Shown here in pieces: positions 20,003-42,689 of a stretch of DNA of 54,210 bases. The position numbers and the translations under genes were made by a program. The notes under the pieces are model-generated. The model was given only the letters and a program-made list of their open reading frames with translations. It ran no database searches and had not been told where the DNA came from. Every line of letters begins with the position of its first letter. The first letter of the stretch is position 1. The DNA is from Solirubrobacter phytolaccae (GTDB lineage Bacteria; Actinomycetota; Thermoleophilia; Solirubrobacterales; Solirubrobacteraceae): positions 1 to 54,210 of the forward strand of contig NZ_JAPDDP010000049.1 of assembly GCF_027587195.1 (NCBI RefSeq), given 5' to 3'.

Positions 20003-20346
20003 TTGCCGTTCCCTCCAGGGGGTTCGAGCCTATGACGGTGCCGGAAGTGCGCCGGCGAGGGGACATCTGGGGGGCGGTGACGGGCCGCTCTCCAGGTGAT
20101 GGCTCGGGGGGTGTTCGGACTGCTGGGACTTTACGGAGGTACGGGTAGCCGCACCATCCCCCGGAAGTGGTAACCGGAAATTGGTGCGCAGAAGACTCGC
20201 CGGGGCTTGCGTGCGCCGCTATCCTGTGGGCACTCGGCCGATAGTCGCAGCCGTCCACTTTTGCCCTTCCCGCCACATACGGGAGCCGGGCCGGACGGGG
20301 TCCGTGAGCGCCGAGCGCCCCTTGCACGGGGGTGTATGACCCCCTG

Positions 20347-20355
20347 TGCTATCTT
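20347..20355 (+). promoter_or_regulatory. candidate extended -10 promoter for rpoBC
   Basis: TGCTATCTT at 20347-20355 reads as a TGn-extended -10 element. A TTGCAC at 20322 is 22 bp away, too far for a normal -35. The resulting leader would be about 75 nt before the TTG start of rpoB. The 690-bp gap with several terminator-like hairpins makes an independent rpoBC promoter likely. About 300 bp between 20003 and 20321 show no gene. Confidence 0.4.
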
Positions 20356-20434
20356 GGTTGGTCGCGCCCGTATCACTTCGATACGCGTCGTGCGCCTTCC
20401 CCTCGCCCTACGACCCTCCCGAGGAGTCGCCGTC

Positions 20435-28060
<7,626 letters not shown>

Positions 28061-28081: not shown

Positions 28082-28110
28082 GAAGGGCCCGCTTCGGCGG
28101 GCCCTTCTTG
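28082..28110 (+). terminator. strong intrinsic terminator after rpoC
   Basis: GAAGGGCCCGC (28082-28092) and GCGGGCCCTTC (28097-28107) form an 11-bp perfect stem with a TTCG tetraloop, followed by TTGTTTC. It closes the RNA polymerase operon and insulates the accessory genes downstream. Confidence 0.92.
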
Positions 28111-28165: not shown

Positions 28166-31093
28166 TTGAAGATCACAGCCATCGCCGCGGCGCTGCTCGC
28201 GCTCGGCGCATCCGCGCCCGCCTATGCGAGCGACGACCTGCCCGGCGCGGACGCCGCGCTCGTGCAGGTGTTCGTTCCGAACGAGGCCGCGATCGCGGCG
28301 CTCACCGAGCAGTTCGACGTCGCGGAGTACAAGAACGTCGAAGCCGACGGGACGATCATGATCGCCGTCGACGCGACCCCCGCCGAACGGGCCGAGCTCC
28401 GCGCGATGGGCCTGCGGATCGGCGCCACGATCGAGGACGCCGGCACCCGCGCGTCCGTCGCCGAGGCGCGCGACGTCCAGCGCGAGGCGGACGAACGCGC
28501 GTCGGCGTGGGCCGAGAGCGGCGTGCCCAAGAGCCGGGCGGCGGTCGCGCCGCGCGGCGAGACGGTGATCCAGCGCGCCGACCGGTTCACGAACTACGCC
28601 GGCACGTTCCTGTACGTGGAGGCGTTCAACAAGGCGACGGTGTCGACCGGTCCGACGTCGTTCAGCGGGCCTTCGCAGGCGCTGTCGTACGCGGGCGCCG
28701 ACGGCGTCTGGAGTGTGGCGACGGACGTCCCGCGCTACACCGACGGCACGACCACGCCGGACACCTACATGTTCCACCGCCAGCTCGTCCGCCTGACGGG
28801 TCCGGCGGCGCAGATCCCGGTGGACGAGCTGACCGTGCGCGTCGCCTCCAGCTCCGGCGCCGTGGACACGAGCAAGGTGAAGAGCTGGCCGGGCGGCACC
28901 CTGCCGCCGCACGTCGCGGGCTACCAGCAGGGCTTCTTCAACCGCTACCAGGACCCGACGGAGAACCGCGCGCAGCTGGACCGGCTCGCGGCGGAGTTCC
29001 CGAACCTGATCACCGCGGTCAACCTGCCGCACCTGAGCAACGGCTACCAGCGCAAGGCGATGGGCATCGTCGGCCTCAAGACGCCGTACGCCGACCAGGT
29101 CTCGGGCACCGGCAGCCTCGGCAACGTCGGCACGGACACCACGCAGACCGCGGCCATCCGCGCGACGCAGGCGCTCGTGATCAACACGAAGGCCTGGGGC
29201 CACGAGGGCGGCAACAGCGTGTCCGTCGAGCTCAAGGCGCCGACCGCGCCGGACGCGCCGCTGTCGGTCGCCGTCACGGGCTCTGACATCGTCGTCAACC
29301 TCGCCGGAGACGTGGCGGGCGCACCGGCGAGCAAGACCGCCGACGTGGTCGCGGCCCTCAACGCCAGCGCGCCGGCGAGCGCGCTCGTCACGGCCTCGAC
29401 CTTCCGCGCCAACGCGGGCCAGGGCGTCGCGCAGCCGACCGCCAAGACGCTGATGAAGGACTACCTGAACGCACCCGCGCACGTCCAGCGCGGCCCGTTC
29501 CAGCAGCGCGTCTACCGGATCGGCGCGCACCGCGACGGCACCAAGGTCGGCGTGTTCTTCACCTGCCAGACGCACGCCCGCGAGTGGACGACCGGCCTCA
29601 CGTGCGTGGAGACCGCCGAGCGGCTCGCGCGCAACTACGCGACGGACCCGGAGACCAAGAAGCTGCTCGACAACGTGGAGGTGTTCATCCACGCCAACGG
29701 CAACCCCGACGGCGGCCACCTGTCGATGTACGACTTCGCGTCCCAGCGGCGCAACATGACCAACTACTGCCAGTTCACGGACCCGGTCGGGCGCAACCAG
29801 TGGGGCGTGGACCTCAACCGCAACTACACCGAGTACACCCGCTTCGACGGCCCCTGGGTCGGCGCGTCCGCCGACTGCACGGTCGACAGCTTCTCCGGTC
29901 CGGGTGAGGCGTCCGAGCCCGAGACCAAGAACGACATGTGGATCGCGGACACGTACCCAAACATCAAGTTCGCGTCCAACATGCACTCGTTCGGCGGCTA
30001 CTTCATGTGGTCCCCGGGCGCGTACATGGACGACGGCAAGCGCACGCTCTCGCCGGCGCCCAACATCGGCGTCGAGAAGTACTTCTTCCAGGCGGGCGAG
30101 AAGATCCTCGGCCGCATCAAGGAGCACCGCGGCACGGTCATCCTGCCGCAGCGCACGGGCCCGATCGCGGACGTGATCTACTCCGGCGCCGGCTCCTCAG
30201 CCGACGACCACTGGTACCGCAAGGGCATCATCGGCTACGGCTTCGAGACCGGTGCCGACAAGTTCATCTCGACCGAGACCGGCACGGTGCAGATCCAGAC
30301 GGGCTTCCAGCCGCCGTTCGCCGAGGCGACCGGCAGCGCCGACCCGCGGCTCGCCTACGAGGGCCGTGACCAGGCGATGGAGTTCGCCTCGGGCAACTAC
30401 GGGATGATCGAGGCCGCGTACGACTACGCGCAGGACACGACGGCGCCGAAGACCTCGATCGAGTACTCGGCCGCCCAGTCCGACAGCGCGCCGATCACGT
30501 TCAAGTTCAACTGGGACGACGAGGCCGCGGTCATCCGCTACACGACCGACGGCTCGACGCCGACGCTGGCCTCGCCGACCTACAACGCCGAGCGCCCGCG
30601 CGGGCTCGGTGAGCTGCTCACGGTCACCAAGCCCGGGGTCACCGAGGTCAAGTGGTTCGCCACGGACATCAAGGGCAACCAGTCGGCGGTGCAGACGCAG
30701 CGGCTGCAGGTCGGCGAGCAGGGCACGGTCGGCGGCTCGGTGCCGGCGACCCTCGCCCTGACGCTGGGCACGCCGGCGGCGTTCGGCGCGTTCACGCCGG
30801 GCGTCGACAAGGAGTACACGGCGACGACCGAGGCGACGGTCCTCTCCACGGCCGGTGACGCGACCCTCACGGTCGCCGACCCGGACGCGGTCAACCCGGG
30901 CCGGCTGGTCAACGGCACCTTCGCGCTGCCGCAGCCGCTGCAGGGCCTCGGCGTGGTCAAGACGTGGACGGCACCGACGTCGAACGAGAAGGTCCCGGTG
31001 ACCTTCAAGCAGACGATCGGCAGGACCGACGCGCTGCGCACCGGTTCGTACTCGAAGGTGCTGACCTTCACGCTAAGTACGACCTCCCCGTAG
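28166..31093 (+). CDS. secreted M14 zinc carboxypeptidase, multidomain (paralog 1)
   Basis: The TTG at 28166 has GGAGGGG upstream. The 975-residue protein has a signal peptide (MKITAIAAALLALGASAPAYA), then a propeptide-like region with the conserved block GETVIQRADRFTNYAGTFLY (about 131-150). The M14 peptidase fold starts near residue 255 (FFNRYQDPTENRAQLD, GYQRKAMG). It is interrupted at about 305-440 by a beta-rich insert (APLSVAVTGSDIVVNLAGD...ALVTASTF). The zinc ligands are His470 and Glu473 (THARE) and His607 (MHSFGGYF). Arg552 is in DLNRN, and Glu694 (GYGFETGAD) is the catalytic glutamate. A chitobiase/hexosaminidase C-like domain (about 778-848) and a C-terminal domain ending YSKVLTFTLSTTSP follow. 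It probably digests peptides or polymers outside the cell. It is the first of four paralogs. Confidence 0.85.
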   Translation: MKITAIAAALLALGASAPAYASDDLPGADAALVQVFVPNEAAIAALTEQFDVAEYKNVEADGTIMIAVDATPAERAELRAMGLRIGATIEDAGTRASVAEARDVQREADERASAWAESGVPKSRAAVAPRGETVIQRADRFTNYAGTFLYVEAFNKATVSTGPTSFSGPSQALSYAGADGVWSVATDVPRYTDGTTTPDTYMFHRQLVRLTGPAAQIPVDELTVRVASSSGAVDTSKVKSWPGGTLPPHVAGYQQGFFNRYQDPTENRAQLDRLAAEFPNLITAVNLPHLSNGYQRKAMGIVGLKTPYADQVSGTGSLGNVGTDTTQTAAIRATQALVINTKAWGHEGGNSVSVELKAPTAPDAPLSVAVTGSDIVVNLAGDVAGAPASKTADVVAALNASAPASALVTASTFRANAGQGVAQPTAKTLMKDYLNAPAHVQRGPFQQRVYRIGAHRDGTKVGVFFTCQTHAREWTTGLTCVETAERLARNYATDPETKKLLDNVEVFIHANGNPDGGHLSMYDFASQRRNMTNYCQFTDPVGRNQWGVDLNRNYTEYTRFDGPWVGASADCTVDSFSGPGEASEPETKNDMWIADTYPNIKFASNMHSFGGYFMWSPGAYMDDGKRTLSPAPNIGVEKYFFQAGEKILGRIKEHRGTVILPQRTGPIADVIYSGAGSSADDHWYRKGIIGYGFETGADKFISTETGTVQIQTGFQPPFAEATGSADPRLAYEGRDQAMEFASGNYGMIEAAYDYAQDTTAPKTSIEYSAAQSDSAPITFKFNWDDEAAVIRYTTDGSTPTLASPTYNAERPRGLGELLTVTKPGVTEVKWFATDIKGNQSAVQTQRLQVGEQGTVGGSVPATLALTLGTPAAFGAFTPGVDKEYTATTEATVLSTAGDATLTVADPDAVNPGRLVNGTFALPQPLQGLGVVKTWTAPTSNEKVPVTFKQTIGRTDALRTGSYSKVLTFTLSTTSP

Positions 31094-31104
31094 GTCGTGG
31101 GTTT

Positions 31105-31132
31105 GCGGGCGTGGAGGCAACTCCACGCCCGC
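31105..31132 (+). terminator. intrinsic terminator after paralog 1
   Basis: GCGGGCGTGGAG (31105-31116) and CTCCACGCCCGC (31121-31132) pair perfectly over 12 bp around a GCAA tetraloop. The T-tract is weak. Confidence 0.8.
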
Positions 31133-31229
31133 GTGCCCTCCCTTTCCCCTCACTTTCTGCTCATATTGGTCGACTGGCCGTCAGTGGACGACGGCCTTCG
31201 AGGTCATTTCGAACGGAGGGTTCGACCAG

Positions 31230-34193
31230 GTGACTGGAAGAGGGGTTGTGCGGCTGGCCCGAGCGACATTGCTCGGTACCGCCATCATGCTCGGCGCGGG
31301 GTCTGCCGCGTACGCCGACGACACAGAGCGTCGTCTGATCAAGGTCACTCACCCGAGTGAGGAGGCCATCCACGAGCTCGAGTCGACGCACGACGTCGGC
31401 TACGTCGGCGATCACACCGAGGCGGCGGTCTACCTGACGCCCGCCGAGGAGGGCGTCCTGCGTGCCCGCGGCTTCACCATCGGCGCGGTCATCGAGGACA
31501 AAGGCACGCTCGAGGCCCGCAAGGCCGAGATCGCGGCCACGACCAAGAGCGAGGCCCTGGCGGCCGAGTTCGCCGAGAAGGGCGCCGCGAAGGCCAAGGC
31601 GCGCGGCATGGTCCCGCCCGTCGGCGAGACCGTGCTGATCCGCGCGTACACCTTCACGAACTACGCCGGTCGTTTCCTGTACGTCGAGGCGCACAACAAG
31701 GCGCACGAGCCCAACAACACGGGCGGCCCGGCGCTGCAGCTGTCGTACGCCGGCCCTGACGGCCAGTTCACGACCCCGGTCAACGGCACCCGCTTCGCCG
31801 ACGAGGGCAAGTACCTCTACCACCGGTACCTCGTCGCGCTGCGCGGCGCCCACGCCGACGTCCCGACCGCCGACCTGCAGGTCCGCGTCGCCGCGGCCAC
31901 GGGCTCGACCGACTCGGGCGGCGTGACGCAGTGGGCCGGCAGCGCGATCCCGCCGCGCGTGGCCAGCTTCCAGAAGGACTTCATCACCAAGTACATGGAC
32001 CCGACCGAGGTCTACGAGCGGATCGACGCGCTGGTCGCGAACAACTCGGACATCGCCGAGATGGTCCCGCTGCCGCACAAGACTCCGGGCTACCAGCGTC
32101 AGGCGATGGCGATGCTCGCGGGCACGACCGCCCCGGGCAACGCGCCGAGCGGCACGGCGGCCCAGGGCTCCGCGGTGCAGCTGTTCTCGAAGGCGATGGG
32201 TCACCTTGGCGGCAACGAGATCACGGCCGAGTTCGTGGCCCCGACCACGGCGGACGCTCCGCTGGGTGTGACCGTCGACGGCAAGAACATCACGGTGAAC
32301 CTGGGGACCAACGCCACGGGCGCGCTGGCCTCGACGGCCGCGCAGGTGCGTGACGCGATCAACGCGTCACCGGCCGCGAGCGCGCTCGTCACCGCCTACA
32401 CCTACTCGGGCAACGCCGGCGCGGGCATCGCCCCGGCTCGCGCGCGCGTGACGCTGTCGGACTTCCTGGCCGCTCCGGCGCACGTCAAGCGCGGCCCGTT
32501 CGAGCAGCGCATCCTGCGCATCGGCAAGCAGCGCGACGGCTCGAAGGTCGGCGTCTACATCTACTGCCAGCAGCACGCGCGTGAGTGGGTCACGCCGATC
32601 ACGTGCCTCGAGACCGCCGAGCGCCTGATCAAGAACTACGCGACCGACCCGACCACCAAGTCCTACGTCGACAACCTGGACATCTTCATCCTCCCGTCGG
32701 CCAACCCGGACGGCGCGCACTACTCGATGTACGACTTCAACTCCAAGCGCCGCAACATGGCCAACTACTGCCCGCTGGGGTCGTCCGTCGGCAACGTCAA
32801 CAACCGCAACAACTGGGGCGTCGACCTCAACCGCAACGCGACGATCGGCTCGGTCTTCGACGGCTACGACGGCGCCGACATGATCAACCCGTCCGTCCCG
32901 TCGTCGATCAGCGCCTGCACCAGCGACACGTTCGCCGGTCCGTTCGAGGGCTCCGAGCCCGAGATGAAGAACGAGCTGTGGGTGGCGGACACGTTCCCGA
33001 AGATCAAGTTCGCGATCAACATCCACACGCACGGCGGCTACTTCATGTGGGCGCCGGGCGCCTACAAGCCGGGCACGCGCGAGCCGCTGCCGTCGGTGAA
33101 CATCGGCGTCGAGCAGTACTTCTTCCAGGTGTCCGAGACGATCCTGTCGCACATCGCGGACTCGCGCGACACGGTGCTGCTGCCGGAGCGCACGGGCCCG
33201 ATCTCCGAGGTGCTGTACTCGGCCGCCGGCAACTCCGCCGACGACCAGTACTACCGCAAGGGGATCATCTCCTACTCGTTCGAGGCCGGCGCGCAGCGCA
33301 TGACGGTCAACCCGACCACCGGCGCGATCTCGCGCCGTGACGTCGGCTTCCAGCCGTGCTTCGGCGGCCCGGGCACGCACGGTGGCACGAACACCAGCAC
33401 CTCGCTGCAGTGCGGCACGGCCAGCAATCCCGACCCGCTGATGGTCAACGAGGGTCGCCTGTCGACGCAGGAGTTCGCGGACGGCAACTACGGCCTGCTC
33501 CAGGGCGCCCTGGAGTACTCGCAGGACGTGACCGCGCCGGACGTGAGCATCGAGTTCTCGGCGGCGCAGACGTCGGGTGAGGCGATCAACTACCGGTTCA
33601 AGTGGGGCGGCGAGGCGGCCGTGATCCACTACACGACAGACGGCTCGACGCCGACGACCAGCTCGCCGACGTACGAGTCCCAGGGCATCCGCCGTCCCGG
33701 CCAGGTGCTGACGTTCTCCGCGCCCGGCGCCTACACGGTCAAGTGGATCGCGAAGGACATGAAGGGCAACGTCTCGCCGGTCAAGTCCCAGCGCCTGCTG
33801 GTCGCGGCCGACGACGCGGACGGCACGGTCGGCGGTTCGGTGCCGGCCACGCTGGCGCTGACGCTGGGCGCTCCGGCGTCCTTCGCGCCGTTCGTCCCGG
33901 GCGTCGCGCGTGAGTACACGGCGACGACCGAGGCGACGGTGACCTCGACGGCCGGTGACGCGACCCTGACGGTCGCCGACCCGAGCGCGACGAACACCGG
34001 CAAGCTGGTCAACGGCGCGTTCGCGCTGCCGCAGTCGCTGCAGGGCCTCGGCACGGTCAAGACGTGGACCGGTCCGACCTCGTCGGAGAAGGTGCCGGTC
34101 ACCTTCAAGCAGGCGATCGCCGCGACCGACGCCCTCCGCACGGGCACCTACAGCAAGACGCTCACCTTCACGCTGAGCACGAACAACCCGTAG
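31230..34193 (+). CDS. secreted M14 zinc carboxypeptidase, multidomain (paralog 2)
   Basis: The GTG at 31230 is preceded by GGAGGG (31215-31220). The 987-residue protein has a signal sequence ending near AAYADD. It keeps the same order of domains as paralog 1: N-terminal region with FTNYAGRFLYVEAHNKA, split M14 domain, chitobiase C-like domain and LTFTLST domain. Zinc ligands are His449 and Glu452 (QHARE) and His599 (NIHTHGGYF). The catalytic Glu685 is in YSFEAGAQ, and NPDGAHYS and GVDLNRN are intact. The insert in the peptidase fold (about 300-410) has the same APLGVTVDGKNITVNLGTN...ALVTAYTY block and no extra PPC-like domain. It is the most diverged copy at the N-terminus (VGETVLIRAYTF). 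Confidence 0.85.
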   Translation: MTGRGVVRLARATLLGTAIMLGAGSAAYADDTERRLIKVTHPSEEAIHELESTHDVGYVGDHTEAAVYLTPAEEGVLRARGFTIGAVIEDKGTLEARKAEIAATTKSEALAAEFAEKGAAKAKARGMVPPVGETVLIRAYTFTNYAGRFLYVEAHNKAHEPNNTGGPALQLSYAGPDGQFTTPVNGTRFADEGKYLYHRYLVALRGAHADVPTADLQVRVAAATGSTDSGGVTQWAGSAIPPRVASFQKDFITKYMDPTEVYERIDALVANNSDIAEMVPLPHKTPGYQRQAMAMLAGTTAPGNAPSGTAAQGSAVQLFSKAMGHLGGNEITAEFVAPTTADAPLGVTVDGKNITVNLGTNATGALASTAAQVRDAINASPAASALVTAYTYSGNAGAGIAPARARVTLSDFLAAPAHVKRGPFEQRILRIGKQRDGSKVGVYIYCQQHAREWVTPITCLETAERLIKNYATDPTTKSYVDNLDIFILPSANPDGAHYSMYDFNSKRRNMANYCPLGSSVGNVNNRNNWGVDLNRNATIGSVFDGYDGADMINPSVPSSISACTSDTFAGPFEGSEPEMKNELWVADTFPKIKFAINIHTHGGYFMWAPGAYKPGTREPLPSVNIGVEQYFFQVSETILSHIADSRDTVLLPERTGPISEVLYSAAGNSADDQYYRKGIISYSFEAGAQRMTVNPTTGAISRRDVGFQPCFGGPGTHGGTNTSTSLQCGTASNPDPLMVNEGRLSTQEFADGNYGLLQGALEYSQDVTAPDVSIEFSAAQTSGEAINYRFKWGGEAAVIHYTTDGSTPTTSSPTYESQGIRRPGQVLTFSAPGAYTVKWIAKDMKGNVSPVKSQRLLVAADDADGTVGGSVPATLALTLGAPASFAPFVPGVAREYTATTEATVTSTAGDATLTVADPSATNTGKLVNGAFALPQSLQGLGTVKTWTGPTSSEKVPVTFKQAIAATDALRTGTYSKTLTFTLSTNNP

Positions 34194-34203
34194 GAACCGG
34201 GCC

Positions 34204-34234
34204 ACGGGGCCCGCGCCACGCGCGCGGGCCCCGT
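34204..34234 (+). terminator. intrinsic terminator after paralog 2
   Basis: ACGGGGCCCGCGC (34204-34216) and GCGCGGGCCCCGT (34222-34234) form a 13-bp perfect stem with a 5-nt loop, followed by CTCGTC. It lies 20 bp before the GTG of the FHA regulator. Confidence 0.8.
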
Positions 34235-34254
34235 CTCGTCCGTACGCTCTGGGC

Positions 34255-34893
34255 GTGTCCACGCCGCAGGAGGTCAAAGCCCGTCTGGAGGCCGAGCGCG
34301 CGGGCGCACCGTTCCTGCTCTATCGCGACGCCACGGGCACCGAGCACGTGCACACGCTCGACGGCGCGACCACGATCGGCCGCCGTCCCGAGCGTGACGT
34401 CGCGCTGGCGTGGGACGGCGAGGTCAGCCGCCTGCACGCGCAGCTCGAGCCCATCGGCCCGGACTGGACGGTGGTCGACGACGGGCTCTCGCGCAACGGG
34501 ACGTTCGTCAACGGCGAGCGTGTCAACGGCAGGCGACGGCTGCGCGACGGCGACCGCGTGGTGGTCGGGGACACGCCGATCGTCTTCCGCGCGCCCCGCG
34601 ACGTCGCCGACAGCACGGCCGCGATCACGGTCGAGCGGACGGTGGCCCTGACCGAGACGCAGCGCAGGATCCTGATCGCGCTCTGCCGGCCGCTGCAGGC
34701 TTCGGCGTACGCGACACCGGCGACGAACAAGGACATCGCGGCCGAGGTGCACCTGAGCGTCGACGCGGTCAAGGCGCACCTGCGCGCCATTTTCGAGCGG
34801 TTTGGACTCGACGACCTTCCACAGAATCAGAAGCGCGCACGGCTCGCGGCCGTCGCACTGGTCAACAACGTCATCAGAAAACACGAGTTCTGA
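34255..34893 (+). CDS. FHA-domain protein with C-terminal HTH-like domain
   Basis: The 212-residue protein starts at GTG 34255. Residues about 35-120 form an FHA domain with TTIGRRPERDVAL, VSRLHAQLE and LSRNGTFVNGERV, including the Arg, Ser, His and Asn positions used to bind phosphothreonine. The C-terminal part (about 128-212) has LTETQRRILIALCRPL, NKDIAAEVHLSVDAVKAHLRAIFERFG and RARLAAVAL, which reads as a helix-turn-helix of the LuxR-like kind. It could therefore link a Ser/Thr kinase signal to transcription. It sits between M14 paralogs 2 and 3 with terminators on its upstream side, so it may regulate the cluster; that role is inferred from position only. Confidence 0.75.
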   Translation: MSTPQEVKARLEAERAGAPFLLYRDATGTEHVHTLDGATTIGRRPERDVALAWDGEVSRLHAQLEPIGPDWTVVDDGLSRNGTFVNGERVNGRRRLRDGDRVVVGDTPIVFRAPRDVADSTAAITVERTVALTETQRRILIALCRPLQASAYATPATNKDIAAEVHLSVDAVKAHLRAIFERFGLDDLPQNQKRARLAAVALVNNVIRKHEF

Positions 34894-35024
34894 GCGCGAA
34901 TCTCGCCGATGGGCGTAGACATGACCGCGCGATGGATGCAGAATGAGCCTTTGAGGAGGGGTGAGCTCCCGGCTTGAGGGGTGGGGGTTCACCGTTTGGG
35001 TTCCACACACGGAGGGTTCCGCCC

Positions 35025-38000
35025 ATGCTCGGGAGAACATCGCTGGTGGCGTTCGCGGCCTCAGCACTGCTGTTTTCGGGAGGAGGTCTGGCGTACGCCG
35101 ACAACGACTTCCCGGATGCCGACTCATCGCTGATCGAGGTCCACGTCGGCAGCGAGTCGGACATCGACGCGCTCGTGGCCGACGGCTTCGACCTCGCCGA
35201 GTACAAGCGCGTGGAGACCGCGAGCGACATCGTCGTTGCGATCGACGCCGTTCCGCAGGAGATCGGCGAGCTGAAGAAGCGCGGCTTCAAGCTCGGCCGC
35301 ACGATCGAGACCCCGGCGCACCGTGCCGCGATCGCCGCGGCGCGCGATGCCCAGCGCGAGCTCGACAGCCGCACCCGCGACTACGCCGCCGACGGCGTGC
35401 CCAAGAGCCGGTCCGCGGTCGCGGTGCCCGGCGAGACGGTCATCCAGCGCGCGAACAAGTTCACGAACTACGCCGGCACGTTCCTCTACGTCGAGGCGCA
35501 CAACAAGGCCATCAAGCGCGTCGCCGGCAGCAACACCCAGTTCACGGGCCCGACGCTTCAGGTCGCGTACGCGGGCGCCGACGGCGTCTTCGTCCCGGCC
35601 GCCACGGCGATGCCGCGCTTCATCGACACCGACCCGACGCCGGACGAGTACATGTACAACCGTCAGCTCATCCGCCTGACGGGCGCCGCGGCGAGCATCC
35701 CGGCTTCGCAGATGACGGTCCGCGTGGCCGCAAGCACGGGCTCCGTCGACACCTTCAAGGTCACGGAGTGGCTCGGCACCACGCTGCCGCCGCACGTCGC
35801 GGGCTACCAGCAGGGCTTCTTCAGCCGCTACCAGGACCCGACCGAGAACCGCGCCCAGCTGGACGCGCTGGCGGCCAGCTTCCCGAACCTGGTCACGCCG
35901 GTCAACCTGCCGAACCTGACGAACGGCTACCAGCGCAAGTCGCAGGCGATCCTGTCCGGCACGTCGGGCATCGGCGTCGCTCCGCCGGCCGTCTACGGCG
36001 CCCCGATCGTCGAGTCCACGGGCGAGATCACGGCGGCGGCGCCGGTCGCCTCGATCCCGTTCAACGGCACCGCCGGCCAGCGGATCTTTGCGACCGTGGA
36101 CGGCATCCCCGGCGGCTCGACGGACTTCATCTTCACGCTCAAGAGCCCGACCGGCGCCGTCATCGGCGGCCCGATCGACACCGGCACGAGCCCGGAGTTC
36201 ATCACCAACCTGAACCTGCCCACGACCGGCACGTACACGTTCGAGGTCTCCGGCTACGAGGGTGACCTCGGCGACTTCACGTTCAAGGTCCAGCCCGTCC
36301 AGGTCTCGGGCGCCGAGGCTTCGGCCGGCGCGGTTGTCCTGACCACCAAGGACTGGGGCCACCAGGGCGGCGACCAGGTCACGGCGGAAGTCAAGAACCC
36401 GGGCACCGGCAACGCGCCGCTGTCGGTCACCGTGACCGGCAAGGACATCGTCGTCAACCTCGCGACCAACGCCTCGGGCGCAGCCACGAGCACGGCCGCG
36501 CAGGTCGTCGCCGCGATCAACGCCAGCCCGGGCGCCTCGGCGCTCGTCACGGCCACCACGTTCCGCAACAACGCCGGCGCCGCCATCGTGCAGCCGCGGG
36601 CGAAGGTCAACCTGGACGACTTCCTGAACGCGCCCGCGCACGTCGCGCGCGGCCCGTTCCAGCAGCGCGTGTACCGGATCGGCTCCGTCCGTGACGGCTC
36701 CAAGGTCGGAGTGTTCCTCTACTGCCAGCAGCACGCGCGCGAGTGGACCACCGGCCTGAGCTGCGTCGAGACCGCCGAGCGGCTCGTCCGCAACTACGCG
36801 ACCGACCCCGACACGAAGAAGCTGCTGGACCAGGTCGAGGTCTTCGTGCTGCCGAACGTCAACCCGGACGGCGGCCACTACTCGATGTACGACTTCGCGG
36901 CACAGCGCCGCAACATGACCAACCACTGCGCGCCATCCCTCGGGGTCGGCGACCCGGCCGCCCGCAACGCCTGGGGCGTGGACCTCAACCGCAACAACGG
37001 CGAGTACTCGCCGGTCGACGGCTACTTCGGCGCGTCGCCGAGCTGCACCAGCGACGTGTACTCCGGCCCGGGCGAGTACTCCGAGCCCGAGATCAAGAAC
37101 GAGAAGTGGGTCGCGGACACGTTCCCGAACATCAAGTTCGCGAACAACATCCACTCCTTCGGCGGCTACTTCATGTGGGCGCCGGGCGCCTACAAGGACG
37201 ACGGCAAGCGCACCACCGCTCCGGCGCCGAACATCGGCATCGAGAAGTACTTCTTCGAGGCCGGCGAGAAGATCCTCGCGCGCATCAAGGAGCACCGCAA
37301 CACGGTGATCCTGCCGGAGCGCACCGGCCCGATCGCCGACGTGCTCTACTCGGCGGCCGGCAACTCGGCGGACGACCAGTGGTACCGCAAGGGCATCATC
37401 AGCTACTCCTTCGAGACCGGGGCCGATCGCTTCATCTCGACCACGAGCGGCACGGACCAGATCCCGACCGGCTTCCAGCCGTGCTTCGCCGGCCCGGGCA
37501 CCTACGGTGGGGCCAACGTCCAGTTCGGCCACCCGATCTGCGACAACTGGCCGGTGCTGCTCAACGAGGGCCGCGACCAGGCCATGGAGTTCGCCTCCGG
37601 CAACTTCGGCATGGTCGAGTCCGCGTACGACTACGCGATGGACACGACGCCGCCGAAGACCTCGGTCGAGGTGTCGGCCGACGAGGGCACGTTCCCGGTG
37701 CACTTCAAGTTCAACTGGGACACCGAGGCCGCGGTCATCTACTACACGACCGACGGCTCGACGCCGACCCTGGCGTCGACGACGTACAACAGCCAGCGCG
37801 CACGCTCGATCGGCGAGGTGCTGACGATCACCAAGCTCGGCGCGACCGAGATCAAGTGGTTCGCCGTGGACATCAAGGGCAACCAGTCCGCCGTCCAGAC
37901 CAAGCGCGTCCTGGTCGGCGCCAGCGAGGAGACGGGCACCGTCGGCGGCACCGTGCCGGCCACGCTGTCGCTCACGCTCGGCACCCCGGCCACGTTCCCG

Positions 38001-38306
38001 GCGTTCATCCCGGGCGTCGCGCGTGAGTACACGGCGACGACGGAGGCCACCGTGACGTCCACGGCCGGTGACGCGACCCTGACGGTCGCCGACCCGAGCC
38101 CGACCAACACCGGCAAGCTGGTCAACGGCGCGTTCGCGCTGCCCCAGCCGCTGCAGGGCCTCGGCGTCGTCAAGACGTGGACCGGCCCGACGTCCAACGA
38201 GAAGGTGCCGGTCACCTTCAAGCAGCAGATCAACGCGAACGACGCGTTGCGCACGGGCACGTACAGCAAGACGCTCACGTTCACGCTGAGCACGACGAAC
38301 CCGTAG
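35025..38306 (+). CDS. secreted M14 zinc carboxypeptidase, multidomain (paralog 3)
   Basis: I choose ATG 35025 (1093 residues), with GGAGGG at 35011-35016, because it begins a clean signal peptide (LVAFAASALLFSGGGLAYA). The N-terminal block GETVIQRANKFTNYAGTFLY matches paralog 1. The M14 fold begins near residue 260. It is interrupted first by a PPC-like beta domain (about 326-425, with FATVDGIPGGSTDFIFTL and GTYTFEVSGYEGDLGDFTF) and then by the APLSVTVTGKDIVVNLATN block (about 463-520). Zinc ligands are His570, Glu573 and His710; the catalytic Glu is 797. The chitobiase-like domain and the terminal YSKTLTFTLSTTNP domain follow. The gene upstream region (34894-35024) shows no clear promoter. 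Confidence 0.85.
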   Translation: MLGRTSLVAFAASALLFSGGGLAYADNDFPDADSSLIEVHVGSESDIDALVADGFDLAEYKRVETASDIVVAIDAVPQEIGELKKRGFKLGRTIETPAHRAAIAAARDAQRELDSRTRDYAADGVPKSRSAVAVPGETVIQRANKFTNYAGTFLYVEAHNKAIKRVAGSNTQFTGPTLQVAYAGADGVFVPAATAMPRFIDTDPTPDEYMYNRQLIRLTGAAASIPASQMTVRVAASTGSVDTFKVTEWLGTTLPPHVAGYQQGFFSRYQDPTENRAQLDALAASFPNLVTPVNLPNLTNGYQRKSQAILSGTSGIGVAPPAVYGAPIVESTGEITAAAPVASIPFNGTAGQRIFATVDGIPGGSTDFIFTLKSPTGAVIGGPIDTGTSPEFITNLNLPTTGTYTFEVSGYEGDLGDFTFKVQPVQVSGAEASAGAVVLTTKDWGHQGGDQVTAEVKNPGTGNAPLSVTVTGKDIVVNLATNASGAATSTAAQVVAAINASPGASALVTATTFRNNAGAAIVQPRAKVNLDDFLNAPAHVARGPFQQRVYRIGSVRDGSKVGVFLYCQQHAREWTTGLSCVETAERLVRNYATDPDTKKLLDQVEVFVLPNVNPDGGHYSMYDFAAQRRNMTNHCAPSLGVGDPAARNAWGVDLNRNNGEYSPVDGYFGASPSCTSDVYSGPGEYSEPEIKNEKWVADTFPNIKFANNIHSFGGYFMWAPGAYKDDGKRTTAPAPNIGIEKYFFEAGEKILARIKEHRNTVILPERTGPIADVLYSAAGNSADDQWYRKGIISYSFETGADRFISTTSGTDQIPTGFQPCFAGPGTYGGANVQFGHPICDNWPVLLNEGRDQAMEFASGNFGMVESAYDYAMDTTPPKTSVEVSADEGTFPVHFKFNWDTEAAVIYYTTDGSTPTLASTTYNSQRARSIGEVLTITKLGATEIKWFAVDIKGNQSAVQTKRVLVGASEETGTVGGTVPATLSLTLGTPATFPAFIPGVAREYTATTEATVTSTAGDATLTVADPSPTNTGKLVNGAFALPQPLQGLGVVKTWTGPTSNEKVPVTFKQQINANDALRTGTYSKTLTFTLSTTNP

Positions 38307-38322
38307 TCACCGCCTAGCCATT

Positions 38323-38356
38323 GGTCCGGTCGTGGAGTGATCTCCACGGCCGGACC
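38323..38356 (+). terminator. intrinsic terminator after paralog 3
   Basis: GGTCCGGTCGTGGAG (38323-38337) and CTCCACGGCCGGACC (38342-38356) form a 15-bp stem with one G-U pair and a TGAT loop. Confidence 0.78.
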
Positions 38357-38445
38357 TGGCGAGAACCCCCGGTTTCTGGTCAGATACCCGTCGGAGTTCC
38401 ACCGGTTGCACGGGGGACAGGGTCTACATACGGAGGGTTCTGCCC

Positions 38446-41400
38446 ATGGTTGGGAAGACTGCGCTTGCCGCGTTCGCGGCATCGGCGCTGTTGCTGGCGG
38501 GAGGCCAGTCGGCGTTCGCGGCCGACGACGGCGCCCCGTTCCAGAAGCTGCTCGAGGTCACGGTCGATTCGCAGACGGCCGTCGACTCGGTCACGACGAA
38601 GTTCGACGCCGCCGAGTACAAGCGCGTCAACGACGACGGCACGATCACGCTGAACGTGTTCGCGACCGCCGACGAAGAGGCCGCGCTCAAGGGCAAGGGC
38701 TACACGATCGGCGCCACGATCGAGGACTCCAACACCGGCAAGCAGCGGATGAAGGAGCGCCAGGAGATCCTGGACCAGGAGGCGCTCGCCAAGACCGTCG
38801 CCGAACAGGGCCTGAAGGGCACCAAGTTCGAGGGCCGCTCGGTCGTCGCGGTCCCCGGTGACACCGTCATCCAGCGCGCGAACACCTTCACCGACATCGT
38901 CGGCCCGTCGGGTGCCACGACCACGGCGCGCTTCCTCTACGTCGAGGCGTTCAACAAGTCGACCGGCTTCGCGGCCAACGGCTCGGCCACCGGCCCGACG
39001 CTCGCCCTGTCGTACGCGGGCGCCGACGGCGTCTACGTCCCCGCCCAGAACATCAGCCGCTTCAACGACACCGACACGACGCCGGTGACGTACATGTACC
39101 ACCGGCAGCTGTTCCGCCTGCCCGCCAACGCCCCCGCGGACATCAAGACCGTGCGCGTTGCCACCACGGCGACCACGGGTGGCGCGGCCGCGAGCGTCGA
39201 GACCTTCCCGGTCACGGAGTGGCTCGGCAAGGACCTCCCGCCGCACGTCGCCGGCTTCAAGAACCAGCCGTTCTTCACGCACTACATGGATCCGACCGAG
39301 AACCGCGCGGACCTGGACGCCCTCGCGGCGGCCCATCCCGAGCTGGTGTCGGTCGAGAACATGCCCGAGCTGTCGTCGGGCTACCAGCGCAAGTCGATGG
39401 CCAACATGAACGGCACAGTCGCCATCACGTCGGCTCCGGCCGCCACCCTCGGCGCGACGCTGGCGGAGATCCCCGTGTCGGAGATGACGGCGGCGCAGCC
39501 GGTCGTCAAGATCCCGTTCAACGCGATCCAGGGTCAGACGATCCGCGCGACCGTGGACGGCATCCCGGCCCGCTCGACCGATCTCGTCATCGCCCTCAAG
39601 GACCCGTCCGGCAAGACGCTGCAGACGATCGACACCGGCACCAGCCCGGAGGTCCTGACCCAGACGCCGCGCATCTCCGGCACCTACACGTTCGAGGTCT
39701 CCGGCTACCAGGGCGAGCTCGGCGACTTCTCGTACAGGGTCCAGGAAGTCACGGGCCCGTGGACGCAGACGGTCACGCTCACGTCCAAGGACTGGGGCCA
39801 TCAGGGTGGGGACCAGGTCCAGGCCGAGTTCCTGAACCCGGGCGCCGCCAACTCGCCGCTCGGCGTCACCGTGACCGACAAGCTCATCTCGGTCTCCCTC
39901 GCGACCGGCGCCGACGGCGCCCTCACGTCGACGGCCGGGCAGGTCGTCGCCGCGATCAACGAGAAGGCGTCCGCGCTCGTGACCGCCGCGACGTTCCGCG
40001 GTGACCGCGGGGCCGGCATCGTCCAGCCGCGCGCGAAGGTCAACCTGGACGACTTCCTGAACGCGCCCGCGAGCGTCGCCCGCGGCCCGTTCCAGCAGCA
40101 CCTGTACCGCATCGGCACCAAGCGCGACGGCAGCAAGCCGGGCGTCTTCCTGTTCTGCCAGCAGCACGCGCGCGAGTGGGCCACGGGCCTCACCTGCGTG
40201 CAGACGGCGCACGAGCTCGTCGAGAACTACGCGACCGACCCACAGACCAAGCAGCTGCTGGACAACGTCGAGGTGTTCATCTCGCCGAACTCCAACCCGG
40301 ACGGCGCGCACTACTCGATGTACGACTCCAACGTCCAGCGCAAGACGCTCGCGAACCGTTGTGACCCGATCTACGGTCCGTCGGACATCTCGCAGCGCAA
40401 CGTGTGGGGCGTCGACATGAACCGCAACAGCGGCGAGTACTCGCTGTTCGACGGGTACGCGGGTGCGTCCGAGGACTGCACCAACGAGACCTACGCCGGT
40501 CCCAGCGAGTACTCCGAGCCGGAGACGCGCAACGAAGGCTGGGTCGTCGATCACTTCCCGAACATCAAGTTCATGAACAACATCCACTCGTACGGTGGGT
40601 ACTTCATGTGGGCGCCGGGCGCCTACAAGAACGACGGGATGCGCACCACGACTCCCGCGCCGAACATCGGCATCGAGAAGTACTTCTTCGAGGCCGGCGA
40701 GAAGATCCTGCGCCGCATCAAGGACTCGCGCGGCACCGTGATCCTCCCGCAGCGCACCGGCCCGATCGCCGACGTGCTCTACTCCGCCGCCGGCAACTCC
40801 GCCGACGACGGCTATTACCGCAAGGGCATCATCGCCTACTCGTTCGAGACCGGCGCTGACCGGATGCTGAACACCACCACCGGCATCCAGCCGACGACCG
40901 TCGGCTTCCAGCCGTGCTTCGGCGCGGTCGGCACGGGCGGCAACCAGGGCGCCTGCCCGCAGAACGGCTCGCTCGTGAACGAGGGTCGTGACGAGGCGCT
41001 CGAGTTCGCGGCCGGCAACTTCGGCCTGGTCGAGTCGGCTTACGACTACGGCAAGGACGTCACGGCGCCCACCACGGCGATCGAGGTCTCGGCCGACAAG
41101 ACGTCGGGCGCGCCGGTGAACTACACGTTCAACTGGCTCGACGAGGCGGCGGTCATCCACTACACGACCGACGGCTCGACCCCGACGCTGTCCTCGACGA
41201 AGTACAACAGCCAGCGCGCCCGCAGCGTCGGCGAGGTGCTGACGCTCAGCACGCCCGGCAAGCACACGGTCAAGTGGTTCGCGGTCGACATCAAGGGCAA
41301 CCAGTCCGCGGTGCAGTCCAAGACCGTCTCGGTCGGCGAGACCGTCGACGGCCCCGTCGGCGGCACCGTGCCGGCGACGCTGGCCCTGACGCTGGGCACG

Positions 41401-41721
41401 CCGGCCACGTTCGGCGCGTTCACCCCAGGCGTCGCCAAGGAGTACACGGCGACCACCGAGGCGACGGTCATCTCGACCGCCGGTGACGCGGCCCTCTCGG
41501 TCGCCGACCCGAGCCCGACCAACACGGGCTACCTGGTCAACGGCACGTTCGCGCTGGCGAAGCCGCTCCAGGGCCTCGGCACCATCAAGACGTGGTCCGC
41601 CCCGACGTCCAACGAGAAGGTCACCGTGACCTTCAAGCAGGCGATCGGCGACAAGGACCCGCTGCGCACGGGCACGTACAGCAAGACGCTCACGTTCACG
41701 TTGAGCACGACGAACCCGTAG
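38446..41721 (+). CDS. secreted M14 zinc carboxypeptidase, multidomain (paralog 4)
   Basis: The ATG follows ACGGAGGGTTCTGCCC, nearly the same leader as paralog 3. The 1091-residue protein has a signal peptide (ALAAFAASALLLAGGQSAFA). It has the same order as paralog 3: an N-terminal region with GDTVIQRANTFTD, a split M14 domain with a PPC-like insert (about 345-436, ATVDGIPARSTDLVIAL and GTYTFEVSGYQGELGDF) and the APLGVTVTDK-like block (written SPLGVTVTDK here), a chitobiase-like domain, and the LTFTLSTTNP end. Zinc ligands are His574, Glu577 and His714; the catalytic Glu is 801. Paralog 4 deviates at some otherwise shared positions: QRKTLAN replaces QRRNMTN and GVDMNRN replaces GVDLNRN. This hints at altered specificity. 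Confidence 0.85.
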   Translation: MVGKTALAAFAASALLLAGGQSAFAADDGAPFQKLLEVTVDSQTAVDSVTTKFDAAEYKRVNDDGTITLNVFATADEEAALKGKGYTIGATIEDSNTGKQRMKERQEILDQEALAKTVAEQGLKGTKFEGRSVVAVPGDTVIQRANTFTDIVGPSGATTTARFLYVEAFNKSTGFAANGSATGPTLALSYAGADGVYVPAQNISRFNDTDTTPVTYMYHRQLFRLPANAPADIKTVRVATTATTGGAAASVETFPVTEWLGKDLPPHVAGFKNQPFFTHYMDPTENRADLDALAAAHPELVSVENMPELSSGYQRKSMANMNGTVAITSAPAATLGATLAEIPVSEMTAAQPVVKIPFNAIQGQTIRATVDGIPARSTDLVIALKDPSGKTLQTIDTGTSPEVLTQTPRISGTYTFEVSGYQGELGDFSYRVQEVTGPWTQTVTLTSKDWGHQGGDQVQAEFLNPGAANSPLGVTVTDKLISVSLATGADGALTSTAGQVVAAINEKASALVTAATFRGDRGAGIVQPRAKVNLDDFLNAPASVARGPFQQHLYRIGTKRDGSKPGVFLFCQQHAREWATGLTCVQTAHELVENYATDPQTKQLLDNVEVFISPNSNPDGAHYSMYDSNVQRKTLANRCDPIYGPSDISQRNVWGVDMNRNSGEYSLFDGYAGASEDCTNETYAGPSEYSEPETRNEGWVVDHFPNIKFMNNIHSYGGYFMWAPGAYKNDGMRTTTPAPNIGIEKYFFEAGEKILRRIKDSRGTVILPQRTGPIADVLYSAAGNSADDGYYRKGIIAYSFETGADRMLNTTTGIQPTTVGFQPCFGAVGTGGNQGACPQNGSLVNEGRDEALEFAAGNFGLVESAYDYGKDVTAPTTAIEVSADKTSGAPVNYTFNWLDEAAVIHYTTDGSTPTLSSTKYNSQRARSVGEVLTLSTPGKHTVKWFAVDIKGNQSAVQSKTVSVGETVDGPVGGTVPATLALTLGTPATFGAFTPGVAKEYTATTEATVISTAGDAALSVADPSPTNTGYLVNGTFALAKPLQGLGTIKTWSAPTSNEKVTVTFKQAIGDKDPLRTGTYSKTLTFTLSTTNP

Positions 41722-41746
41722 TCGCCGGCACCACCGCGTTGACCTA

Positions 41747-41778
41747 GAGCCCGTTCGGCCAATGTGCCGGGCGGGCTC
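41747..41778 (+). terminator. intrinsic terminator after paralog 4
   Basis: GAGCCCG (41747-41753) pairs with CGGGCTC (41772-41778), and CGGC/GCCG can pair inside. TTCGTCGTT follows. It ends the M14 cluster. Confidence 0.7.
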
Positions 41779-41839
41779 TTCGTCGTTCAGGGTTTCACCC
41801 TTGACTTCAACTGCGCTCACCGCGACAGTTGCATCGACC

Positions 41840-41909
41840 GGCGAGGGCCCAGTCGGGCGGTCAACAAACACAGCGGAGGGTGTTGCATGTTCCGACGTAC
41901 CGGAAGGGT
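41840..41909 (+). promoter_or_regulatory. leader shared with the 42667 gene, copy 1
   Basis: The segment contains ACCGGCG, GTCAACAAACAC and CGGAGGGTG before the ATG, then an identical 23-nt stretch from the ATG (41887-41909). A TTGACT (41799-41804) lies at the same distance upstream as in the second gene. It may hold a common promoter and ribosome-binding region or reflect a recent duplication. Confidence 0.55.
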
Positions 41910-42441
41910 CTTGGGCTGCCTGGTGGGCGTACTCGGGGTGCTGGCGCTGGCGGCGCCGGCGTCGCAGGCTGGGACGGTGAACATCCCGTCCAACCTCGAG
42001 TGCAACTACGACGACCGGCAGACGGTGCCGTACCTGTGTGAGCCTGAGCAGCTCGTCGTCGGCATCGACGGCACGGACGCGGTGTGGCGGTATTGGGCGC
42101 AGCTGGGGTTCGACGTGGCCGGCAACCTGCCGAGCGGCGCGACCGTGACGTCGGCGAAGCTGTACCTGTACGGGCTCTCGGACCCCGGTTTCAGCGCTTC
42201 GCTGATCGTGGGCGATCCGTACGCCCCTGAGGACGAGGTCGAGTTCTCCTCGGCGCCGGGCTGGGTCGACTTCGACGTCACGGCCTCGGCTCAGGCCGCG
42301 GCCGGCACGGCGTCGGACGCGGTCCTGGACGTCTGGCCCGCGCTGGACACGCCGTTGCTCCCCTTGAGCTGGGAGTTCGTCGGGTCCGCGTCCTCGAGCA
42401 CGTCGTTGCGGCCGTACCTGCAGGTCGACTACACGCTCTAG
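41887..42441 (+). CDS. secreted DNRLRE-like beta-domain protein
   Basis: I choose ATG 41887 (184 residues), with GGAGGG 6 nt upstream, because it starts a clean signal peptide (MFRRTGRVLGCLVGVLGVLALAAPASQA). The in-frame start at 41764 would extend it with non-homologous sequence. The mature part is all-beta: TVNIPSNLECNYDDRQ, WAQLGFDVAGNLPSGATVTSAKLYLYGL and WVDFDVTASAQ. This order (FD...LP.GA.V.SAkLyLy) is that of DNRLRE domains, found in secreted proteins as adhesion or carbohydrate-contact modules. No catalytic domain is attached. The next gene carries the same signal peptide and the same type of domain fused to an oxidase. Confidence 0.72.
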   Translation: MFRRTGRVLGCLVGVLGVLALAAPASQAGTVNIPSNLECNYDDRQTVPYLCEPEQLVVGIDGTDAVWRYWAQLGFDVAGNLPSGATVTSAKLYLYGLSDPGFSASLIVGDPYAPEDEVEFSSAPGWVDFDVTASAQAAAGTASDAVLDVWPALDTPLLPLSWEFVGSASSSTSLRPYLQVDYTL

Positions 42442-42616: not shown

Positions 42617-42689
42617 GCCACCGGCGGGGCCCCACCGGAGCAGTCAACGAACACGGAGGGTGGTTGATGTTCCGACGTACCGGAAGGGT
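42617..42689 (+). promoter_or_regulatory. leader shared with the 41887 gene, copy 2
   Basis: The segment contains ACCGGCG, AGTCAACGAACAC and CGGAGGGTG, and the 23 nt from the ATG (42667-42689) are identical to the first gene. TTGACT at 42583-42588 has the same spacing to ACCGGCG as in copy 1. Confidence 0.55.

What the first reader, a model, noticed from the sequence alone, without database searches (positions are those of the whole stretch)
28166..41721. Four tandem giant secreted M14 carboxypeptidases in 13.6 kb
Four paralogs of 975-1093 residues stand in direct orientation, all with intact zinc ligands and catalytic Glu, signal peptides and the same domain order. Copies 3 and 4 are closest to each other in leader and architecture. 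Each copy is followed by its own strong hairpin terminator, so they appear to be separately controlled. Such amplification suggests selection for dosage or for diverged specificity in extracellular peptide or polymer degradation.
Basis: partly seen in the sequence, partly recalled or inferred. Interest (0 to 1): 0.72.

Follow-up and report, generated by a model that had tools for sequence, protein, structure and literature searches.

The report
Carboxypeptidase array with shared surface tag
Four neighbouring genes of a soil bacterium (Solirubrobacter) encode large secreted peptide-trimming enzymes, and each ends in an unnamed domain that the same genome also carries at the tail of about 140 other proteins, nearly all apparently secreted, probably to hold them on the cell surface.

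Summary
The four tandem M14 carboxypeptidases are real, with intact active sites. They are not an assembly duplication or a recent dosage amplification. Each copy groups with orthologs from other species, and the array follows rpoC in S. deserti and S. taibaiensis too. An FHA-HTH gene lies between copies 2 and 3. Strong hairpins without T runs follow each copy.

The larger finding is the last ~120 residues of each copy. No Pfam or NCBIfam model names this domain. At least 147 matches lie in this genome; all 7 sampled genus genomes have 69 or more, against 0-3 found in sampled genomes of other genera. In 144 of 144 copies examined the protein ends with the domain, Tyr at -14 and Pro last. Cargo is a diverse set rich in secreted hydrolases. 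The end resembles the published WxL distal motif, with Phe for Trp and one extra residue. The predicted fold resembles chaperone-usher pilins, weakly. In 5 of 7 genus genomes a WxLIP-like membrane-protein gene adjoins a domain gene.

Best reading: exo-carboxypeptidases displayed on the cell wall by a divergent WxL-like domain. Anchoring is inferred, not shown. Canonical WxL membership fails on both tryptophans and on the profile.

The parts
28166..31093 (+). copy 1: M14 carboxypeptidase with signal-like N-terminus, 975 aa
   Evidence: ortholog 79.5% in S. deserti CPCC 204708, first gene after rpoC
31230..34193 (+). copy 2: M14 carboxypeptidase, 987 aa
   Evidence: ortholog 83% in S. taibaiensis, first M14 after rpoC
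34255..34893 (+). FHA domain plus HTH protein, 212 aa, inside the array; relatives inside the arrays of S. taibaiensis (83%) and S. deserti (77%)
35025..38306 (+). copy 3: M14 carboxypeptidase, 1093 aa from ATG 35025 (ORF opens with TTG 34974)
   Evidence: ortholog 86% in S. taibaiensis
38446..41721 (+). copy 4: M14 carboxypeptidase, 1091 aa
   Evidence: ortholog 75% in S. taibaiensis; AF2 model, M14 part Z 28.7 to CPA4
29510..30316 (+). copy 1 M14 catalytic core as matched by Pfam
32508..33299 (+). copy 2 M14 catalytic core as matched by Pfam
36678..37436 (+). copy 3 M14 catalytic core as matched by Pfam
40108..40896 (+). copy 4 M14 catalytic core as matched by Pfam
39412..40113 (+). approximate insertion inside the copy 4 M14 fold, before the HAREW strand (limits read from the model, approximate)
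   Evidence: AF2 model residues about 297-530; the M14 match spans model 247-845 (599 residues) for about 293 aligned
36057..36254 (+). PPC-like segment in the copy 3 insertion (E 0.0088, below cut-off); copy 4 has an alignable segment, copies 1 and 2 do not
30722..31090 (+). copy 1 C-terminal domain
33822..34190 (+). copy 2 C-terminal domain
37935..38303 (+). copy 3 C-terminal domain
41350..41718 (+). copy 4 C-terminal domain
   Evidence: AF2 model pLDDT 87
28082..28107 (+). hairpin with T-rich tail after rpoC (intrinsic terminator-like)
31099..31138 (+). hairpin after copy 1, -36.1 kcal/mol, no T run
34198..34242 (+). hairpin after copy 2, -38.2 kcal/mol, no T run
38317..38360 (+). hairpin after copy 3, -36.9 kcal/mol, no T run
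41741..41784 (+). hairpin after copy 4, -31.2 kcal/mol, no T run
24002..28060 (+). rpoC, upstream neighbour (rpoB before it, ORF 20207-24001)
   Evidence: recognised by eye from translations (no family search run); 95% and 93% identical proteins upstream of the arrays of S. deserti and S. taibaiensis

Best explanation
An old, rpoC-linked array of secreted zinc exo-carboxypeptidases. They trim C-terminal residues from peptides at the cell surface and are part of a genus-wide set of surface or secreted proteins rich in hydrolases. Each copy has a signal peptide, an N-terminal alpha-beta region, a beta-rich region, an M14 domain interrupted by an inserted region, an Fn3-like domain and the shared C-terminal domain. 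That ~120-residue domain is most likely a divergent WxL-like wall-attachment module with an incomplete-Ig, pilin-like fold. It holds its cargo non-covalently at the cell wall, in some cases with a membrane-anchored WxLIP-like partner that could donate a strand. Shown here: the genes, the active-site residues, the synteny, the old orthologous copies, and the amplification and strict C-terminal position of the domain. Inferred: carboxypeptidase activity (from the family), secretion (from signal-like N-termini), wall attachment (from the WxL-like motif and the linkage to a WxLIP-like gene), strand donation (from the predicted fold and published WxLIP models).
For: Active-site residues in 25 of 25 rows; M14 fold at Z 28.7, rmsd 3.1, 293 aligned. 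Array after rpoC in two named species; each copy grouped with orthologs. Domain: 147 matches in the own genome, two of them short fragments; 7 of 7 genus genomes with 69-108 scored matches, against 2 of 18 other family genomes with one each and 0 of 16 from other families of the order; 3 of 396 phylum-wide. 140 of 140 fetched copies end at the stop codon with Pro last; Tyr at -14 and final Pro in 144 of 144; Yxxx[LIV]T[FYW]xLxxxxP in 122 of 144 against 0 of 28,800 composition shuffles. 130 of 140 have a signal-like N-terminus by a simple heuristic. M14 homologs in Jiangella, Nakamurella, Actinomadura and Haloactinopolyspora end after the Fn3-like part and gave no match to the domain. Cargo rich in hydrolases. 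Published WxL distal motif YXXX(L/I/V)TWXLXXXP (PMC5817068 section 14). A C-terminal-domain gene lies beside the WxLIP-like gene in each locus found, and the WxLIP-like start codon is 4 nt after the domain gene's stop in 4 of 5 same-strand cases. Small secreted proteins with a Trp at motif 1 align with the domain: hhalign probability 97%, E 7e-11.
Against: The WxL profile PF13731 does not detect the domain in the own genome. Both tryptophans are absent: the distal position is F 129, L 7, Y 5, V 3 of 144, and motif 1 has A, S, T, G or P in the 131 of 140 copies where the pattern located it. The distal spacing has one extra residue. hhalign to the genome's one WxL-like protein aligns 13 residues only, and the bridging small proteins lack the final xxxxP. 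The WxLIP-like gene was not found in 2 of 7 genus genomes that have 105 scored domain copies each, so it cannot be an obligate partner. Its PF06030 scores are below cut-off (19.3 and 13.0 against 27.3 bits), other Ig-type models score as well or better (FixG_C 21.1, fn3_5 21.0 and 19.2 bits), and PF06030 at E <= 10 also rings in 9 of 14 control genomes. Foldseek's top rows for the domain are GH3-type glycosidases (34 of 50 rows) with 14 of 50 pilins, all at E 0.01 or worse; VIA-align puts pilins first but only at Z 8.3, near the tool's stated background of 7-8. No wall-binding data exist.
Confidence: 0.52

Rival explanations
1. The C-terminal domain is a sorting signal read by a dedicated export or processing machine (as T9SS C-terminal domains or PEP-CTERM are, recalled) and is cut off or exchanged after delivery.
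For: Strict C-terminal position, invariant end, one domain on about 140 diverse proteins, lineage-restricted amplification.
Against: Nothing follows the domain, so no transmembrane or basic tail after it. A folded ~120-residue domain (pLDDT 87) with a WxL-like end and a WxLIP-like neighbour fits binding better. One sortase gene was found; no other sorting machine was searched for, so its absence is not shown.
Confidence: 0.19
2. The domain is a substrate- or polymer-binding module of released enzymes, not an anchor to the own cell wall.
For: Cargo includes many polymer-degrading enzymes with CBM and PKD modules; Foldseek's top rows are parts of GH3-type glycosidases.
Against: Cargo also includes peptidases, amidases, phosphatases and GDPD without an evident common substrate; strictly last position and linkage to a WxLIP-like gene with a C-terminal hydrophobic helix.
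Confidence: 0.18
3. One reading: recent amplification for dosage, or an assembly duplication.
For: Four copies in 13.6 kb in one orientation; copy number varies between genomes, and in G003 the three relatives lie on three contigs with no tandem seen.
Against: Each copy has its own orthologs in other species; catalytic identity is higher between the ortholog pairs compared (83-91%) than between paralogs (60-75%); four copies on one contig of a 4-contig genome.
Confidence: 0.03
4. The M14 enzymes remodel the cell's own peptidoglycan peptides rather than environmental peptides.
For: Probable wall location. A Campylobacter peptidoglycan-modifying enzyme (Pgp1) came up in the listing of a search for M14 papers (listing only).
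Against: Nearest sequence and fold matches are digestive-type carboxypeptidases A, B and T, and the other domain-bearing proteins look degradative.
Confidence: 0.1

Closest known systems
M14 funnelin carboxypeptidases (CPA, CPB, CPT)
   Same: Fold, Zn ligands, catalytic Glu and Arg127/Asn144/Arg145/Tyr248 equivalents
   Different: M14 fold interrupted by an inserted region (with an extra segment in copies 3 and 4), extra N- and C-terminal domains, 253 Asn/Ser and 255 Ala in the four copies
WxL domain proteins and their WxLIP (DUF916-DUF3324) partner, published mainly from Lactobacillales and Bacillales
   Same: Last domain of secreted proteins; distal frame Y-xxx-L-T-aromatic-x-L; cargo-bearing and domain-only forms (L265, L269); neighbouring WxLIP-like gene
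   Different: No tryptophans at either motif where located, one extra residue before the final Pro, not found by PF13731, about 140 copies in one genome, cargo rich in enzymes, partner gene not found in 2 of 7 genomes
Chaperone-usher pilins (CsuA/B, MyfA, FimA, PapG pilin domain)
   Same: Top rows of the VIA-align second look: 45 of 50 by entry title, best Z 8.3; last strand near the chain end
   Different: 8-17% identity, modest match strength, Foldseek itself ranks GH3-type glycosidases equally high; no pilus role implied
PEP-CTERM, T9SS C-terminal domain and similar tails (recalled, not tested)
   Same: One C-terminal module on many different secreted proteins of one lineage
   Different: Here a whole beta domain with nothing after it

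Membership tests
Peptidase family M14 (PF00246) | Profile match over the curated cut-off | tested here: met
   107.8-136.8 bits against 21.6
Peptidase family M14 (PF00246) | HxxE and distal His zinc ligands, catalytic Glu | tested here: met
   25 of 25 rows
Peptidase family M14 (PF00246) | Carboxypeptidase fold | tested here: met
   AF2 model of copy 4, Z 28.7 to 2boa_A, 293 aligned, rmsd 3.1; copies 1-3 not modelled
Peptidase family M14 (PF00246) | Carboxypeptidase activity | not testable with these tools
   needs protein
WxL domain (PF13731) | Match to the WxL profile | tested here: not met
   one sub-cut-off hit in the genome, in another gene; no hit for the 21 or 20 domain sequences scanned
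WxL domain (PF13731) | Two Trp-x-Leu motifs | tested here: not met
   distal W position F, L, Y or V in 144 of 144; motif-1 position A, S, T, G or P in 131 of 140, not located in 9
WxL domain (PF13731) | Distal motif frame YXXX(L/I/V)TWXLXXXP at the C-terminus | tested here: inconclusive
   exact published motif 0 of 144; Yxxx[LIV]T[FYW]xLxxxxP at the chain end 122 of 144
WxL domain (PF13731) | C-terminal domain of secreted proteins | tested here: met
   140 of 140 end at the stop; 130 of 140 signal-like N-termini by heuristic
WxL domain (PF13731) | Gene cluster with a WxLIP (DUF916-DUF3324) partner | tested here: inconclusive
   WxLIP-like genes beside domain genes in 5 of 7 genus genomes; PF06030 below cut-off and not the best-scoring model
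WxL domain (PF13731) | Non-covalent binding to peptidoglycan | not testable with these tools
   needs protein
SCPU domain (PF05229) | Profile match | tested here: not met
   best 10.6 bits elsewhere in the genome, cut-off 22.4
Chaperone-usher pilin fold | Incomplete Ig fold with the last strand at the C-terminus | tested here: inconclusive
   45 of 50 VIA rows but Z at most 8.3; 14 of 50 Foldseek rows; missing strand not inspected
Chaperone-usher pilin fold | Donor-strand completion by a partner | not testable with these tools

The most novel reading that the evidence does not exclude
Solirubrobacter has turned one WxL/pilin-like incomplete-Ig domain into a general C-terminal surface adaptor. 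About 140 diverse proteins per genome, many of them exoenzymes and the M14 array among them, are plugged onto a common wall receptor by strand donation, as an actinobacterial counterpart of the cellulosome, WxL and T9SS solutions.
Probability: 0.24. Interest if true: 0.82.

Novelty: new variant of a known kind. Interest (0 to 1): 0.6.

Why it matters
If right, a soil genus displays much of its exo-degradome with one domain that has no name in the two general family libraries searched. It would give a handle (a last-120-residue module ending in Tyr-x12-Pro) to predict its surface proteome, a candidate display tag for actinobacteria, and a test of how WxL-like wall domains and pilin folds are related. 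The M14 array itself is an old, conserved set of probable surface carboxypeptidases beside rpoC.

Tried and rejected
Assembly duplication and recent amplification: rejected by synteny and tree.

Gene conversion of the C-terminal domain: paralogs in the window share 78-88% in the domain against 60-75% in the core, while the four ortholog pairs share 58-85% against 83-91%, which looked like homogenisation. Identical-codon rates at conserved residues do not differ (0.72-0.82 domain, 0.76-0.84 core), so conversion is not shown; shared constraint is enough. Some exact shared runs of 45-60 nt between copies stay unexplained.

WxL and SCPU membership by profile: not met. Sortase-type sorting: one sortase gene, not followed. 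Viral fold library: no match better than E 0.013. PDB sequences: nothing below E 0.41. Pfam and NCBIfam on the domain: best E 0.038 to 0.17, to unrelated families. No WxL structure appears in the rows shown by the fold searches; absence there excludes nothing. Fetching Firmicutes WxL sequences for a profile comparison failed and was not pursued.

Literature: nine searches (terms in those calls) listed no paper that by title or abstract start treats this domain or array; two searches listed only 15 of 43 and 12 of 46 papers. I saw passages of PMC9772566, PMC10599100 and PMC5817068, and section 14 of the last; all others only as search listings.

Rows dropped or capped: of the 147 matches, four are in the window, 140 were fetched, two are short fragments left out (C111:5327, C1:23083), and C66:109858 was read separately (L265) and is not in the 144. 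One search scored 150 of 197 candidates, at most 108 for a genome, 11 and 10 for a genome, so these counts are lower bounds. One search's model A7 contains the two outgroup copies L080 and L081, so those two hits are by construction; of its 18 of 399 genomes, 6 are weak partial hits (E 0.0018-0.008). The tree used 33 of 55 extracted segments (identical or short ones left out). In the cargo scans only the 25 commonest families of each group were shown.


Full report
Observation. The four ORFs are present as described and each matches Pfam Peptidase_M14 well over its cut-off. The genome has 20 M14 matches in 7.7 Mb, 6 of them in tandem groups (four here, two on contig C84). Aligned with 21 homologous rows, the zinc ligands and the catalytic residues checked are kept in 25 of 25 rows. 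phmmer of copy 4 against the PDB finds carboxypeptidases A, B and T. An AF2 model of copy 4 (mean pLDDT 76) matches human CPA4 at Z 28.7 with 293 residues aligned across model residues 247-845, so the M14 fold is interrupted by some 230-300 residues. Copies 3 and 4 have an extra ~110-residue segment there, PPC-like below cut-off in copy 3.

Surroundings. Upstream are rpoB and rpoC (recognised by eye). Between copies 2 and 3 lies an FHA-HTH gene (34255-34893; FHA 58.9 bits, over its cut-off; GerE HTH 22.3 against 23.5), with relatives of 83% and 77% inside the arrays of S. taibaiensis and S. deserti. Downstream are a small protein with a weak CBM96 match and a DNRLRE protein with sub-cut-off vanadium-chloroperoxidase and PAP2 matches. 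Hairpins of -29 to -40 kcal/mol follow 16 of 16 array genes examined in four genomes, 0-19 nt after the stop; 0 of 400 dinucleotide shuffles reach the real values. By the tails printed they lack a T run, so they may be T-less terminators or mRNA 3' ends that slow decay; this is inference.

History of the array. The search for related loci gave 13 loci. S. deserti CPCC 204708 (two records of one strain), S. taibaiensis and S. soli hold arrays. In the first two rpoB and rpoC lie directly upstream; the S. soli stretch does not reach that far. S. taibaiensis has six copies in a row on one contig. At E <= 1e-40 all 7 genus genomes have M14 relatives, 3 to 10 each, with a second tandem group of five in G005 and a pair in the own genome; in G003 the three lie on three contigs, with no tandem seen. 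The tree of 33 catalytic cores puts copies 1, 2, 3 and 4 each with orthologs from other species (100/100, 98/92, 100/98, and a 100/99 clade for copy 4). All array rows, with one S. taibaiensis copy from another contig, form one 100/98 clade, and homologs from other actinobacteria fall outside. Hence the duplications predate the species compared. Catalytic dN/dS between the four ortholog pairs is 0.27-0.43 (from dN and dS), as under purifying selection.

The C-terminal domain. A search with copy 4 showed its last ~125 residues all over the genome. A profile of 21 copies (A2) finds 147 matches, four of them in the window. I fetched 140 of the other 143. In 140 of 140 the chain ends at the domain and the last residue is Pro, and 130 of 140 have a signal-like N-terminus by a simple hydropathy rule. 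With the four window copies, Tyr at -14 and final Pro are found in 144 of 144, and Yxxx[LIV]T[FYW]xLxxxxP in 122 of 144. Pfam and NCBIfam give no name. All 140 cargo parts were scanned in Pfam in groups of 53, 66 and 21. Families among the commonest shown: alpha-L-rhamnosidase domains, peptidases S15, S8, S9, M14, M1, M6, M36 and M64 (and reprolysin-type in one), ThuA, amidase, GSDH, 3-keto-disaccharide hydrolase, GH10, GDPD, calcineurin-type phosphoesterase, with CBM and PKD modules.

Distribution. Genus: 7 of 7 genomes, 69-108 scored matches each. Other genera of the family: 2 of 18 genomes, one match each. Other families of the order: 0 of 16. Phylum sample: 3 of 396, the own genome included. 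A broader model finds 18 of 399 class genomes: 4 in the genus (own included), 7 in other genera of the family (1-3 matches), 1 in another family of the order, and 6 weak partial hits. Outside the genus the domain is on HtaA-like proteins (named by eye) and on small proteins with little else; the own genome has such a small one too (L265). M14 homologs in Jiangella, Nakamurella, Actinomadura and Haloactinopolyspora end after the Fn3-like part and showed no domain match, so the domain was added in Solirubrobacter or lost elsewhere as a module.

What the domain is like. The isolated model (127 residues, pLDDT 87) is all beta. Foldseek against the PDB gives only weak matches (E 0.013 and worse): 34 of 50 rows are GH3-type glycosidases, 14 are chaperone-usher pilins, which have the higher TM-scores (up to 0.62). 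The VIA-align second look puts CsuA/B pilin first (Z 8.3, rmsd 2.6, 109 aligned) and 45 of 50 rows are chaperone-usher subunits by title. The tool notes that models without a clear match often reach Z 7-8, so this is a lead. The published WxL distal motif is YXXX(L/I/V)TWXLXXXP (PMC5817068 section 14); our domain has the same frame with Phe for Trp and one more residue before Pro. Three small proteins with signal-like N-termini, from genomes of the same family or order, have a Trp at the first motif (SWTLSV, SWTLSI, LWTLSI) and align along the domain (hhalign probability 97%, E 7e-11), though they lack the final xxxxP. PF13731 and PF05229 do not detect the domain in the genome.

A partner. Published work proposes that WxLIP (DUF916-DUF3324 and a membrane helix) inserts a hairpin strand into a gap of WxL to complete its beta sandwich (PMC10599100, passages). 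PF06030 gives three weak hits in the genome (at that threshold it also rings in 9 of 14 control genomes). Two of them are genes that read as signal peptide, Ig-like regions and C-terminal membrane helix (by eye); other Ig-type models score as well or better on them; the third (C99) was not followed. A two-row profile finds this kind in 5 of 7 genus genomes, and a C-terminal-domain gene lies beside it in 7 of 7 loci returned, which are six genes. In five genomes it is upstream on the same strand, with the WxLIP-like start codon 4 nt after its stop in four and 94 nt in one. The five are probably one inherited gene pair, so they are not independent. In the own genome that domain gene encodes a purple-acid-phosphatase-like protein; the second WxLIP-like gene follows a WxL-like small gene (21.8 bits, cut-off 25) and faces a GH10 domain gene. 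Against this, G001 and G006 have no such match but 105 scored domain copies each.

Conclusion. The array is an ordinary enzyme family in an unusual setting. The best-supported mechanism is surface-displayed exo-carboxypeptidases attached by a divergent WxL-like domain that the genus uses on a large, hydrolase-rich set of proteins. Enzyme chemistry is inferred from the family; anchoring is inferred from motif, fold and gene linkage; nothing here measures binding.

Noticed in passing
34255-34893: FHA-HTH gene inside the array, with relatives inside the arrays of two other species; possible regulator.
   Followed up: partly
41887-42441 and 42664-44745: Two successive genes share the leader MFRRTGRV: a small protein with a weak CBM96 match and a DNRLRE protein with sub-cut-off haloperoxidase and PAP2 matches; a 51% relative of the second sits between array copies in S. 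deserti.
   Followed up: partly
31099-31138, 34198-34242, 38317-38360, 41741-41784: Strong T-less hairpins right after each array gene, several with a CGTGGAG...CTCCACG core also seen in other species.
   Followed up: partly
L272 (G000 C136:95066-96977): Possible small WxL plus WxLIP-like gene pair in an actinobacterium, both below Pfam cut-offs but adjacent.
   Followed up: partly
L080, L081 and class scan: Outside the genus the domain is on HtaA-like proteins (by eye) and on small proteins with little else: possible older forms of the amplified domain.
   Followed up: partly
G005 C5:219778-233271: Second tandem group of five M14 relatives in one genus genome.
   Followed up: no
L144/L146 (neighbouring genes), L083/copy 3 (different contigs) and others: Exact shared DNA runs of 45-60 nt between C-terminal domains; cause unknown.
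   Followed up: no
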